Source of the DNA: Bacillus sp. OxB-1
GTDB lineage: Bacteria > Bacillota > Bacilli > Bacillales_A > Planococcaceae
Direction: 5' to 3'
Length of the DNA stretch: 64,000 bases
Assembly (NCBI RefSeq): GCF_000829195.1
Contig: NZ_AP013294.1
Coordinates: 496,001 to 560,000, forward strand
Notes under the pieces: generated by a model
The model's database searches: none
What the model was told of the DNA's origin: nothing
The model's input: the letters and a program-made list of their open reading frames with translations, nothing else
In this document: piece by piece, positions 44,690 to 49,488 of the stretch
Position numbering within the stretch: the stretch's first letter is position 1
Layout of the letters: each line of letters starts with the position of its first letter
Program-made: the position numbers and the translations under genes

Positions 44690-45625
44690 TTATTGTGCGA
44701 CTTCTTGTGATTCCATCGCTTCCGTAATGTCTACGGCATTGTCCAGGACATCTTGGGGAACATCGATCTTTTCAACTTCATTGATTTGGCTGATGATCGA
44801 CTTCATCTGTTGGATAATGTGCATTTCTTGTCCTTCAATGGACATTGTCATGTCCATATCCATATTGAATGCATTCGTTTGGAATGTTTCCTTGTCGATG
44901 AAAATCTCGAAATTCAAACTTTTGACGTTCATGTTTTCCATCATTTCTGCTTCTTCCTCACCCATTTCCATACCCGCCGGCATGCTGTCCGCGATTGCTT
45001 TCTTCATCAAGTTGTTGAATTTCTCGCCTTCCGCGGATAGAGTCAAGATGAACTCATCGTCGGTCTGCTCGAACTGGAAGTCTTCCGTGAACTCTTTGAA
45101 CATTTCCATGTCCGGAGTCGGATCCGTTCCGCCCCCCATTTGCTCCATCATGTCGTCCGACATTTCTTTCGGGAATTTCAGCCATTGCTCAGATTCAGGA
45201 TCAAACATGAAGAATCCTGCATCTGTAATGTAAATTTCCGTATCCATGGCACCTTGCTCTCCCATATCCATGTTCATCTTTTGATACATCGCAAGCGGCT
45301 CCATGATCATGTCCATGTCCATCTTGAATTTGCTGTCCATGTTCAAGTCTTCGCTAGGGACCTCAATTTTCTGCTGGATGTCCATTTTGGCGTGCATGCT
45401 CTTCAAATCTTCGGAAGCTTCCATCGCCTTCTCGTAGACTTCCATTGCCGTCAGCTCGCTTTGCTCATCGGCCTCCTCATTCGCTTTCGTGTCAGTTTCC
45501 TCATTTGTATTCGGCTCCGCATCCGAAGGCGTCTCCGTTTTCGGCGTCGCTGTCGAGTTACAAGCGCTTAAAGCTAGCGCCAACATGACGATAGCTAACC
45601 CTTTCAACCAATTCTTCAAATTCAT
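44690..45625 (-). CDS. methionine-rich lipoprotein (DUF6612-like)
   Basis: 311 residues. A lipoprotein signal with LALSAC (Cys22) is followed by a Thr/Glu linker and a domain with many Met residues (MDMDMIMEP, MEMGEEEAEMMENM, MDMDMTMSIEG). The layout, with MEVYEKAMEASEDLKSMHAK near residue 60, fits the DUF6612 / LolA-like outer-surface lipoproteins of Bacillales, function unknown. The start has AAAGGG upstream. Methionine clusters might bind copper or resist oxidation; that is speculation. Confidence 0.8.
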   Translation of the reverse strand: MNLKNWLKGLAIVMLALALSACNSTATPKTETPSDAEPNTNEETDTKANEEADEQSELTAMEVYEKAMEASEDLKSMHAKMDIQQKIEVPSEDLNMDSKFKMDMDMIMEPLAMYQKMNMDMGEQGAMDTEIYITDAGFFMFDPESEQWLKFPKEMSDDMMEQMGGGTDPTPDMEMFKEFTEDFQFEQTDDEFILTLSAEGEKFNNLMKKAIADSMPAGMEMGEEEAEMMENMNVKSLNFEIFIDKETFQTNAFNMDMDMTMSIEGQEMHIIQQMKSIISQINEVEKIDVPQDVLDNAVDITEAMESQEVAQ

Positions 45626-45778: not shown

Positions 45779-45804
45779 GTTTAGCCCCGAAAAGGATTGG
45801 GTAT
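45779..45804 (+). promoter_or_regulatory. sigma-B-type promoter of a putative small RNA
   Basis: GTTTAG (45779-45784), a 14-bp spacer and GGGTAT (45799-45804). No gene follows on the plus strand before the terminator at 45843. Confidence 0.75.
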
Positions 45805-45811
45805 ACTTCTA

Positions 45812-45876
45812 TCATCCCACCACCTTTCTCTTTAAGTGAAAACTGCACCCCATCTAAAACGGGGTGCAGCTTTTTT
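45812..45876 (+). ncRNA. putative sigma-B-dependent small RNA (about 65 nt)
   Basis: A transcript starting about eight bases after GGGTAT would run through a C-rich single-stranded stretch (ATCATCCCACCACC at 45820-45833) into the strong terminator at 45843-45876. No reading frame longer than a few codons is present. C-rich unpaired segments that can pair with ribosome binding sites are typical of Gram-positive regulatory RNAs. Alternatively the promoter could give antisense RNA to the 3' end of hflX by read-through. Existence of the transcript is inference. Confidence 0.5.
45843..45876. terminator. terminator of hflX and of the putative small RNA
   Basis: CTGCACCCC / GGGGTGCAG (45843-45851 with 45861-45869), T-runs on both strands. 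Confidence 0.9.
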
Positions 45877-47146
45877 AATGGCTGATGATAAATTCCTCGA
45901 AACGCTCTCGTTCCATAATATCCATCTCCACGGTCAACAATGTGCCGTCCTCTTCGTATTCCGTGTTTTTCACAGTCGCTTTGTCGTTCAAATAGGCGAC
46001 GACATCTCCCCGTTCAAACGGAACGAGCAATTTACAGGTGACGTATTGTTCAAAAATCTTTTTCTTGATCAAACTGATCAGCTCTTCCAGACCCGCTTCC
46101 TCTTTCGCCGAAATCCAAACGCTATCGCCCCGGATTTCCGGATAGGGAACATTGGCTAAATCCGCTTTATTGTACACCTTCAACGTTTCCACATTTTCCA
46201 CTCCGACATCATGAAGTGTGTCATTCGTCACATTCATCATGAATTGGTACTCCGCATTCGATACATCCACGACATGTAAAAGCAAATCGGCGTCTCGCGC
46301 TTCCTCCAATGTCGAGCGGAATGCTTTCACAAGATGATGCGGCAATTTCGAAACGAATCCGACCGTATCCGTCAAGATGAATTGCTTGTTATCAATAAGC
46401 TTCACTCTCCGGACGGATGTATCCAGTGTGGCAAAGAGCATGTCTTCCTCAAATACTTGTTTCGCATGCTCCGGATCCATTTCGGCGAGCAGTTTGTTCA
46501 TCAACGTGGATTTTCCTGCGTTCGTATAGCCGACGATGGAGACGACCGGCGTTCCGCTCTTTTTCCTCTGCTTGCGCTGCGTCTCACGCTGGTCCTTCAT
46601 ATGCTCCAAATCCCGGCGTAGTTTGGCAATTTGGTCTTCGATTTTCCGGCGGTCGAGCTCGAGTTTTGTCTCCCCAGCCCCTTTGTTCTGGAAACCGCCG
46701 CCCGTTCCGCCCCCTTGCCGGCTTAGGGATGCGCGCAACCCGACCAGACGCGGCAACGTATATTGCAGCTGCGCCAACTCGACTTGCATCCGGGATTCTT
46801 TCGTCCGAGCCCGTCTCGCGAAAATGTCAAGGATGAGCATCGTCCGGTCAATCACTTTACATTCCAGTTCCTGTTCCATATTACGGATTTGGGATGGTGT
46901 CAGCTCGTCGTTGAAAATAACAAGGTTTGCATCGGTTTCTTCATATAAACGCCGAATCTCTCCAACTTTCCCCTTTCCGACGTATAAAGAAGGATGGCGT
47001 CTTTCTAAATTTTGCGTCACCATCCCGACGACCTCTACATCGATCGCCTCCGCCAAATTTTTCAATTCTTCCATCGTATAATCGAAATGCTCGTCGGTTT
47101 GCTCATGGACTCCGACGAGGATTGCGTATTCCACCAATATATCCAT
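45875..47146 (-). CDS. hflX: ribosome-associated GTPase HflX
   Basis: 423 residues. The N-terminal HflX domain (MVTQNLERRHPSLYVGKGKVGE; RTMLILDIFARRARTKESR) and Gly-rich linker (SRQGGGTGGG) precede the GTPase with G1 GYTNAGKST, G3 DTVGF and G4 NKAD. HflX splits stalled 70S ribosomes. ATG 47146 has GGAAGGGG seven bases upstream. Single gene, convergent with the putative small RNA. Confidence 0.94.
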   Translation of the reverse strand: MDILVEYAILVGVHEQTDEHFDYTMEELKNLAEAIDVEVVGMVTQNLERRHPSLYVGKGKVGEIRRLYEETDANLVIFNDELTPSQIRNMEQELECKVIDRTMLILDIFARRARTKESRMQVELAQLQYTLPRLVGLRASLSRQGGGTGGGFQNKGAGETKLELDRRKIEDQIAKLRRDLEHMKDQRETQRKQRKKSGTPVVSIVGYTNAGKSTLMNKLLAEMDPEHAKQVFEEDMLFATLDTSVRRVKLIDNKQFILTDTVGFVSKLPHHLVKAFRSTLEEARDADLLLHVVDVSNAEYQFMMNVTNDTLHDVGVENVETLKVYNKADLANVPYPEIRGDSVWISAKEEAGLEELISLIKKKIFEQYVTCKLLVPFERGDVVAYLNDKATVKNTEYEEDGTLLTVEMDIMERERFEEFIISH

Positions 47147-47987: not shown

Positions 47988-48275
47988 CTAAAGCGCCTCT
48001 GTCCCCGTCCCAGGTGAAATCGATTCACTTGGGATTTTTTTCGCTCTATGCATGGTCCCACCACAAAAAGGACATTCAATCTCGACTTCTTCGTTCTGTT
48101 TTAAGTCGACCTGAAAGTCTGCCACTACAAAATCGGGAACGTCATCTAATTCCTGACAATCCCGACACTTAAATTCAATCGTACTTATTTTTTCGTTCAA
48201 TCCGAACGGGTCATCCTCTTCTAATGATTGTAAAAATGCCCGATTCAGTTCATCCAGCTCTTCGTCTGTTGGCAT
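47988..48275 (-). CDS. zinc-ribbon accessory protein of the IS91-like element
   Basis: 95 residues, acidic N-terminus (MPTDEELDELNRAFLQSLEE), two CxxC knuckles (CRDC and CPFC) that could hold one zinc, and a Ser/Thr tail. It overlaps the transposase end by 26 bases and its stop codon lies within the origin hairpin, so it is part of the element. Not recognised otherwise; it may bind DNA or the transposase. Confidence 0.7.
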   Translation of the reverse strand: MPTDEELDELNRAFLQSLEEDDPFGLNEKISTIEFKCRDCQELDDVPDFVVADFQVDLKQNEEVEIECPFCGGTMHRAKKIPSESISPGTGTEAL

Positions 48276-49488
48276 CCTCCGACTTCTCCCATCTTTTAAT
48301 AATTTTCATGCCCTCCATATAATGATACAGGATTCCATAATCAGCATGCCAAATCTCCACCAAGTCCATCTCCCGATGGCAACACGGGCAAATAAACGGA
48401 TCCTGATCAAAAGCCTCTCTCATCCGTTCCCGATATGTTTTTCTCTTTTTCCTTCTTTCCAAAAGCATGGAAAGTTGTTTTGTCCGCATGAAGGCATAAA
48501 GGCTTAGAATTTGATTTGCCTTCTGATACGATCTTCTGCTATACAACCCAAAACGGCCCACCATTCTGAAGTGTTTTGGTGGGATGTGCTGTAAAATATT
48601 GAACAGGAATCGATAGACCGACTGCTTCACGTCCACCCGTTTCCCTGTTTTATGATCTTCATACCAGAACTCGACTTCCTTCCCATCGTATCCGACAATG
48701 CGATATTCGGCGATGGCCGGTCTCGCCAAGTATCTGCCTATGTATTTGGCTGCCCCTTTGGCATCCTTCATTTTCTGTTCTGCGTTCACATAGAATCCTT
48801 TCGGATATCGCCTATATAAATCATTGATTAATTCCTGGGCCTTTGGGTGATCGGGAAACCACTTCTTCATTAAATCGAGTAGCACCTTTTGCCAGGATTT
48901 CCGTAAGAATTCATAGGGAATGAAATCACTTGAACACCATTCATTCCGATTATCAATCGCCCCTTCCGTCACTAGGGCATGTATATGTGGATTGAACTTC
49001 AGATCCCTTCCGAACGTATGGATGACCGTGATCACCCCGGCTTGTAGGTTGCGCTTCCTGCTTTTACGACGATAATAGAATTGGAAGACCCCGGCTACCT
49101 GTCTACTCAACTCATTCAATTTTTTGCGGTCGTGGAAAAAGATATTCCGAAGTTCCTCGGGAATGGTGAATACCATGTGGCGATGCGGCACATTAAAGAT
49201 TAAGTCCTGCTGTTTGGTGGACCAGTCATCCGTATATTTCTTTCCACACTTATTACAAAAGCGGCTCTTGCATGTGAAACAGACAATGACAGGAGATGGA
49301 TTCCCTTCACAACCCAGACATTCATATCTCGCATATCCGACATCCGAGGATCCACAACGGATTGTTTTCAGGACGGTTTCTTTTATATCCTCTCGATAAG
49401 CTTCTGGAAACAAGGTAGAGTGCATTTGCCAAAACCCATCGAAATGGTCTTTCAGTATTCTTTTGATGACTCCACTAGTCCCTCTCAT
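48250..49488 (-). CDS. IS91 family transposase (HUH, Y2)
   Basis: 412 residues. An N-terminal zinc-binding domain (CLGCEG, CFTCKSRFCNKCGKK), the HUH motif HIHALVTEG near residue 176, and the paired catalytic tyrosines YIGRY near residue 242 identify a rolling-circle transposase. A further CPCC knuckle is near the C-terminus (PFICPCCHREMDLVEIW). The frame is intact, so it could be active. The start ATG has AAGGGA upstream at a loose distance. Confidence 0.92.
   Translation of the reverse strand: MRGTSGVIKRILKDHFDGFWQMHSTLFPEAYREDIKETVLKTIRCGSSDVGYARYECLGCEGNPSPVIVCFTCKSRFCNKCGKKYTDDWSTKQQDLIFNVPHRHMVFTIPEELRNIFFHDRKKLNELSRQVAGVFQFYYRRKSRKRNLQAGVITVIHTFGRDLKFNPHIHALVTEGAIDNRNEWCSSDFIPYEFLRKSWQKVLLDLMKKWFPDHPKAQELINDLYRRYPKGFYVNAEQKMKDAKGAAKYIGRYLARPAIAEYRIVGYDGKEVEFWYEDHKTGKRVDVKQSVYRFLFNILQHIPPKHFRMVGRFGLYSRRSYQKANQILSLYAFMRTKQLSMLLERRKKRKTYRERMREAFDQDPFICPCCHREMDLVEIWHADYGILYHYMEGMKIIKRWEKSEDANRRRAG

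What the first reader, a model, noticed from the sequence alone, without database searches (positions are those of the whole stretch)
45779..45876. Candidate sigma-B-dependent small RNA of about 65 nt
A near-consensus sigma-B promoter (GTTTAG-N14-GGGTAT) faces a strong terminator only about 40 bases after the expected start, with no gene between. The transcript would carry a C-rich unpaired segment (CCCACCACC) that can pair with ribosome binding sites, as in known Gram-positive regulatory RNAs. It also overlaps the hflX 3' end.
Basis: partly seen in the sequence, partly recalled or inferred. Interest (0 to 1): 0.78.

Follow-up and report, generated by a model that had tools for sequence, protein, structure and literature searches.

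The report
Genus-specific C-rich stress small RNA
A very short RNA gene next to hflX is conserved in nearly every Sporosarcina genome but in no other genus tested. It probably switches off messenger RNAs by covering their ribosome-binding sites, and its recent birth between two older genes can be read step by step in the genomes.

Summary
In detail: GTTTAG-N14-GGGTAT at 45779-45804, an unstructured C-rich stretch, then a strong terminator with no gene between. It is very probably a real, unannotated, genus-specific small RNA of about 65 nt.

The same cassette (promoter, AUCCCACCCCCUUUCUCUU core, terminator) sits near hflX in 67 of 68 Sporosarcina genomes: full core in 59, a shorter AUCCCCCUUUCU-like core in 8 basal ones. 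I found no match carrying both promoter and core in other genera of the family, and the core occurs almost only in Sporosarcina among about 85,000 genomes. Terminator stems vary freely while the core stays nearly invariant.

Best reading: a trans-acting repressor whose 5' C-rich tail pairs with G-rich Shine-Dalgarno sequences, like RsaE/RoxS. Each Sporosarcina genome checked also has a separate RoxS gene.

Sigma-B control is likely but not proven: the -35 matches the genus' own sigma-B promoter, while the -10 (GGG[C/G/T]A[T/A]ACTA) also carries the ACTA of its sigma-F promoter. The hflX overlap is not conserved, so it is not an antisense RNA. Targets are unresolved; Hol_Tox toxin mRNAs are leads. 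Outgroups keep the neighbouring gene and hflX but lack the -10 and core, so the RNA probably arose in this genus.

The parts
45779..45784 (+). -35 element GTTTAG (GTTTA[AG] in 60 of 66 relatives, GTATA[AT] in 6)
   Evidence: one base from the usual -35 (GTTTAA) of the genus' own rsbV/sigB promoter
45799..45808 (+). -10 region GGGTATACTT (genus pattern GGG[C/G/T]A[T/A]ACTA), 13-14 nt from the -35
45811..45876 (+). predicted small RNA, about 65 nt; start inferred from the -10 position, end from the T-run
   Evidence: inference from promoter and terminator; conservation; fold
45814..45832 (+). C-rich single-stranded core AUCCCACCACCUUUCUCUU; AUCCCACCCCCUUUCUCUU in most relatives, complementary to SD-like AAGAGAAAGGGGGUGGGAU
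   Evidence: alignment, fold, genus-specificity
45843..45876 (+). intrinsic terminator: 9-bp stem CTGCACCCC/GGGGTGCAG, 9-nt loop, T6; stem sequence replaced freely among relatives; may also serve hflX from the other strand (inference)
45875..47146 (-). hflX (ribosome-associated GTPase), convergent neighbour; its stop codon overlaps the T-run
44690..45625 (-). divergent DUF6612 lipoprotein gene upstream; an ABC transporter gene stands there in 41 relatives; context, not part of the RNA gene

Best explanation
This is a Sporosarcina-specific small RNA gene. A promoter of the sigma-B/sigma-F class, most likely read by sigma-B under general stress, makes an RNA of about 65 nt that consists of a 5' single-stranded pyrimidine tail (AUCCCACCmCCUUUCUCUU) and a terminator hairpin. 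The tail pairs in trans with G-rich Shine-Dalgarno sequences of the type AGAAAGGGGG(UG) and blocks translation of a set of mRNAs, as RsaE/RoxS does. Shown here: promoter, core and terminator and their conservation. Inferred: transcription, sigma factor, pairing and target choice.
For: The core is nearly invariant in 59 genomes and the promoter pattern is kept in 66 aligned elements, while terminator stems change freely but still fold. Between the window and its sister species (86% identical over the 201-nt region), core and -10 are 97-100% identical against 75% just upstream. The cassette persists in two upstream contexts, ABC transporter in 41 genomes and a divergent gene in the genomes without it, and when displaced from hflX. 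A second copy lies about 1.1 kb away in four genomes. In the one genome that lacks it, G015, the -35 and core are missing together although the ABC gene and a terminator hairpin remain. The tail is unpaired in the minimum-energy fold. RsaE/RoxS C-rich regions act by pairing with SD sequences (PMC4409812).
Against: No transcript data. The -10 pattern is a hybrid of the genus' sigma-B and sigma-F promoters. The only recurrent strongly complementary mRNAs (Hol_Tox toxins) were found among the 30 of 68 genomes that have the exact SD-ATG pattern; most of the S. ureae clade, with an intact core, lacks the pattern. A search of four genomes for AGAAAGGGGG before ATG showed no other shared target. In the window's own RNA the A in CCACCACC breaks perfect pairing with GGGGG-type sites.
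Confidence: 0.7

Rival explanations
1. The same small RNA, but made in the forespore by sigma-F (perhaps sigma-G) rather than by sigma-B in stressed vegetative cells, as for CsfG of Bacillus; or made by both.
For: The -10 GGnnAnACTA fits the genus' spoIIIG promoter (GGA[CT]A[AGC]ACTA), and 13 elements read GGGCAA, with GGGCAAACTA one base from GGACAAACTA. sigG is present in 67 of 68 genomes. Six elements have GTATA as -35.
Against: The -35 is GGTTTA[AG], as in the rsbV promoters, and not CGCATATT as in spoIIIG; the third base of the -10 is G in 59 of 66, and the sixth is T in 48, both as in the sigma-B promoters. The window's own copy matches GTTTaa / GGG(A/T)A(A/T), the published sigma-B recognition (PMC7824861), at all but one base.
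Confidence: 0.3
2. No regulatory RNA: only a shared bidirectional terminator between convergent genes, with a promoter-like string by chance.
For: The terminator sits between hflX and, in 41 genomes, a convergent ABC transporter gene; outgroup genera have that arrangement without the core.
Against: A terminator does not need a nearly invariant 19-nt unstructured core and a promoter pattern kept in 66 elements; the cassette persists where the ABC gene is absent.
Confidence: 0.06
3. A cis-antisense RNA that controls hflX.
For: In the window the T-run overlaps the hflX stop codon by two bases.
Against: Distance to hflX varies from about 55 to 480 nt, with repeats inserted between, and in G085 the element is about 3 kb from hflX.
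Confidence: 0.03
4. A decoy rather than a repressor of mRNAs: the tail, which resembles the 16S rRNA anti-Shine-Dalgarno end and shares UCCCAYYCCCUUU with RoxS, competes with the ribosome or with RoxS for the same sites.
For: CACCxCCUUUCU of the core resembles the 16S 3' end (GAUCACCUCCUUUCU, from memory, not checked in this genome); the RoxS orthologue in the same genome carries UCCCAUUCCCUUU, and weak RsaE covariance hits fall on the element.
Against: At the centre of the anti-SD the RNA has C or A where 16S has U, so pairing with canonical GGAGG sites is weakened; nothing shows competition.
Confidence: 0.1

Closest known systems
RsaE/RoxS (RF01820)
   Same: Single-stranded C-rich segment (UCCCAYYCCCUUU) just before a terminator; expected to pair with Shine-Dalgarno sequences; weak covariance matches of 20-33 bits.
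   Different: About 65 nt instead of about 110, no 5' half, different promoter class; every one of the 25 Sporosarcina genomes searched has a separate RoxS-like gene at 61-79 bits elsewhere.
sigma-B-inducible RsaA, RsaD, RsaF of Staphylococcus aureus (PMC3861533)
   Same: sigma-B-linked small RNAs; RsaA has a conserved sigma-B promoter; C-rich boxes are common in Gram-positive regulatory RNAs.
   Different: No Rfam match at gathering threshold; another genus and locus; not compared by sequence beyond Rfam.
CsfG, forespore small RNA of Bacillus (sigma-F and sigma-G; described in PMC9147052 and PMC3574147)
   Same: CU-rich conserved segments; sigma-F class of control is a possibility here.
   Different: CsfG is 136 nt in PMC3574147, lies at ylbG-ylbH and is widely conserved; this one is at hflX and confined to Sporosarcina.
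RnaC/S1022 of Bacillus subtilis (PMC4366234)
   Same: Trans-acting small RNA of the Bacillales; recalled as sigma-B-linked, which the paper's text did not confirm.
   Different: Acts on AbrB; not compared by sequence here.

Membership tests
RsaE/RoxS (RF01820) | Covariance score at or above the gathering score of 79 bits | tested here: not met
   20.4 bits in the window, at most 33 bits in relatives
RsaE/RoxS (RF01820) | Being the orthologous RoxS gene of its genome | tested here: not met
   A separate RoxS-like locus exists in the same genome, G000:C1:1893377-1893484, 76.8 bits
RsaE/RoxS (RF01820) | C-rich single-stranded region next to the terminator | tested here: met
   UCCCACCMCCUUU against UCCCAUUCCCUUU of the genus' RoxS
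C-rich Gram-positive trans-acting small RNAs (functional class) | Own promoter, no conserved ORF, accessible C-rich box, intrinsic terminator, conserved | tested here: met
C-rich Gram-positive trans-acting small RNAs (functional class) | Shown transcript and shown pairing with target SD sequences | not testable with these tools
   needs RNA-seq or Northern and target assays
sigma-B regulon | -35 GTTTAA and -10 GGG(A/T)A(A/T), spacing 13-15 | tested here: inconclusive
   Window copy fits at all but one base (GTTTAG); across the genus the -35 is GTTTA[AG] in 60 of 66, but the fourth base of the -10 is C or G in 54 of 66
sigma-B regulon | sigB operon in the genome | tested here: met
   rsbR-S-T-U-V-W-sigB at about G000:C1:478-483 kb; sigB in 68 of 68 genomes
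sigma-F regulon | -10 GGnnAnAnTA with -35 as in the genus' spoIIIG promoter (CGCATATT) | tested here: inconclusive
   -10 extension fits, -35 does not
Antisense RNA of hflX | Conserved overlap with hflX | tested here: not met
   distance to hflX from about 55 to 480 nt

The most novel reading that the evidence does not exclude
A young small RNA whose birth can be read from genomes: in the Sporosarcina ancestor the end of an ABC transporter gene (codons GAG GTT TAA) supplied a ready-made sigma-B -35 (GGTTTAA), a pre-existing terminator between that gene and hflX supplied the 3' end, and a new -10 plus a short C-rich tail between them made a stress-controlled anti-Shine-Dalgarno RNA, which then lengthened to AUCCCACCCCCUUUCUCUU in the larger clade and outlived the ABC gene in about 20 species.
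Probability: 0.45. Interest if true: 0.65.

Novelty: new member of a known kind. Interest (0 to 1): 0.52.

Why it matters
Small RNAs of Sporosarcina appear little described (one literature search combining the genus, small RNA and sigma B gave nothing), and this one has no Rfam match. It is short, well bounded, and conserved through one genus with clear outgroups, so it is a clean case for two questions: how a bacterial small RNA gene is born (stop codon as -35, shared terminator as 3' end), and how a second RoxS-like seed under a different signal is used in a genome that already has RoxS.

Tried and rejected
Rfam at gathering threshold: no hit in the window. Matches outside the genus with the RNA-only covariance model (G274, G195, G210 and others): twenty selected loci were read; those outside the genus lack promoter and core and look like chance terminators. 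Reverse-strand ORF (a GAGAAAGGTGGTGGGATG ribosome-site look-alike, 36 aa): the ATG is not kept in the sister species or others, rejected. sigB or sigG absence as a discriminator: both are near-universal in the genus, so it gave nothing. Target search: own genome with up to 3 mismatches gave 128 sites against 91 for the reversed-pattern control; the best site was one mismatch before a putative lipoprotein gene (L189), not followed up; SD-ATG pattern searches gave Hol_Tox toxins plus scattered genes. Hits of the core in Lokiarchaeota, Flavonifractor and Akkermansia contigs are about the number expected by chance (about 4 by my estimate).

Full report
Observation. The window shows GTTTAG-N14-GGGTAT at 45779-45804, the C-rich stretch ATCCCACCACCTTTCTCTT at 45814-45832, and a terminator with a 9-bp stem, 9-nt loop and T6 at 45843-45876. 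hflX (45875-47146, minus strand) ends in the T-run. The tight promoter pattern occurs once in 64 kb and not at all in 40 Markov random sequences, but the looser pattern is not enriched in the genome, so the promoter string by itself would be weak evidence. The predicted RNA folds with z = -4.6 and its C-rich 5' part is single-stranded in the minimum-energy fold.

Conservation. hflX was found in 68 of 68 genomes of the genus and its downstream region was read in all of them. An RNA-only covariance model built from 32 aligned elements found the element in 65 of 68 genomes; two more (G070, G091) carry a short form seen by eye, so 67 of 68 have it. In G085 and G064 it is displaced from hflX, and in G002 it is on another contig. 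Only G015 lacks it. In 66 aligned elements the -35 is GTTTA[AG] in 60 and GTATA[AT] in 6, the spacer is 13 or 14 nt, and in the -10 region G, G, A and T at positions 1, 2, 5 and 9 are invariant. The core (CCCAC(3-6)TTTCT with few variants) is nearly invariant in 59 genomes, whereas terminator stems are replaced almost freely and still fold. Against the sister species G035, identity is 97-100% in core and -10 and 75% in the 79 nt just upstream.

Distribution. An exact scan of about 85,000 species genomes for ATCCCACCMCCTTTCTCTT found 29 contigs, 26 of them Sporosarcina or Filibacter, the other three about as many as chance gives by my estimate. Family-wide matches outside the genus that were inspected lack promoter and core. 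hflX loci of 22 genomes in other genera of the family were found, and none of those read has the cassette near hflX (one locus, G159, had only 93 nt available).

Origin. In 41 genomes the -35 is the end of an ABC transporter gene...QFQEV* is written GAG GTT TAA, or the like. Outgroup genomes G216, G169, G195, G107 and G108 keep the ABC gene beside and convergent with hflX without the -10 and the core; G216 even ends in GAGGTTTAA. A tree of HflX puts the 59 full-core genomes in one clade (97/92) and the 8 short-core genomes plus G015 in its sister clade (100/99), with all outgroups outside. The simplest history is one gain in the genus ancestor and one loss in G015, where GTTTAA reads GTCATC and the core is gone while a terminator hairpin remains. 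Whether the short or the full core is ancestral is not settled. In the genomes without the ABC end, including the window, a divergent gene stands there instead (DUF6612 lipoprotein in the window) and the element persists, which argues that it has its own function.

Sigma factor. A complete rsbRSTUVW-sigB operon lies about 17 kb before the start of the window. As yardsticks from the same genus I read the region upstream of rsbV (sigma-B autoregulation) in 31 genomes, with a clear promoter in 29, and upstream of spoIIIG (sigma-F type) in 30, with a clear promoter in 27. rsbV: A-GGTTTAA and GGGTAT, with no ACTA after it. spoIIIG: CGCATATT and GGA[CT]A[AGC]ACTA. The element has GGTTTA[AG] and GGG[C/G/T]A[T/A]ACTA: the -35 and the GGG.AT part agree with sigma-B, the fourth base and ACTA with sigma-F. 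The window's copy is among the closest to sigma-B. I give sigma-B, alone or with sigma-F, about two chances in three.

Mechanism. The RNA is little more than a pyrimidine tail and a terminator. The genus-consensus tail is complementary to AAGAGAAAGGGGGUGGGAU, that is, to G-rich Shine-Dalgarno sites, and C-rich boxes of RsaE/RoxS are known to act that way (PMC4409812; PMC3861533). The core shares UCCCAYYCCCUUU with the RoxS of the same genomes, which is a separate gene at G000:C1:1893377-1893484 in the window's genome, so this is not RoxS but may overlap its target set. It also resembles the 16S rRNA anti-Shine-Dalgarno end (from memory), except at its centre.

Targets. SD-ATG pattern searches most often returned Hol_Tox (PF16935) toxin-like genes with a 12-13-nt perfect match to the genus-consensus tail (-26 kcal/mol duplex). 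Their SD can also form a hairpin of its own, only 30 of 68 genomes carry the exact pattern, and the window's own tail has an A that breaks the match. This is a lead, not a finding.

Verdict.

Noticed in passing
L265 1500 and 1877 (G000:C1:2657061 and 2657438): Two tandem 27-aa Hol_Tox (PF16935) ORFs with the unusual SD AGAAAGGGGGTG; similar 36-aa ORFs in about 20 other Sporosarcina have their SD inside a potential hairpin CACTCCCTTGAGAAAGGGGGTG.
   Followed up: partly
L224 1501-1608 (G000:C1:1893377-1893484): RoxS/RsaE orthologue of Sporosarcina scoring 61-79 bits in 25 genomes, just under the Rfam gathering score of 79, so threshold-based annotation misses it in this genus.
   Followed up: partly
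L054, L059, L062, L063, L069 between the element and hflX: Repeats ending in GGCGCC...CGCTTTTC inserted between the element and hflX in several species, and also beside hflX in G108 of another genus.
   Followed up: no
window 48250-49488, minus strand: IS91-type transposase gene (Y2_Tnp with Zn_Tnp_IS91 domains).
   Followed up: no
L067, L070, L071, L072 (G062, G011, G078, G017): Two copies of the small RNA cassette about 1.1 kb apart, with a divergent gene like the window's lipoprotein gene between them; the hflX-proximal copy has a GTATA -35.
   Followed up: partly
L187 2025-2043: One IMG/VR contig of 3.8 kb carries the 19-nt core.
   Followed up: no
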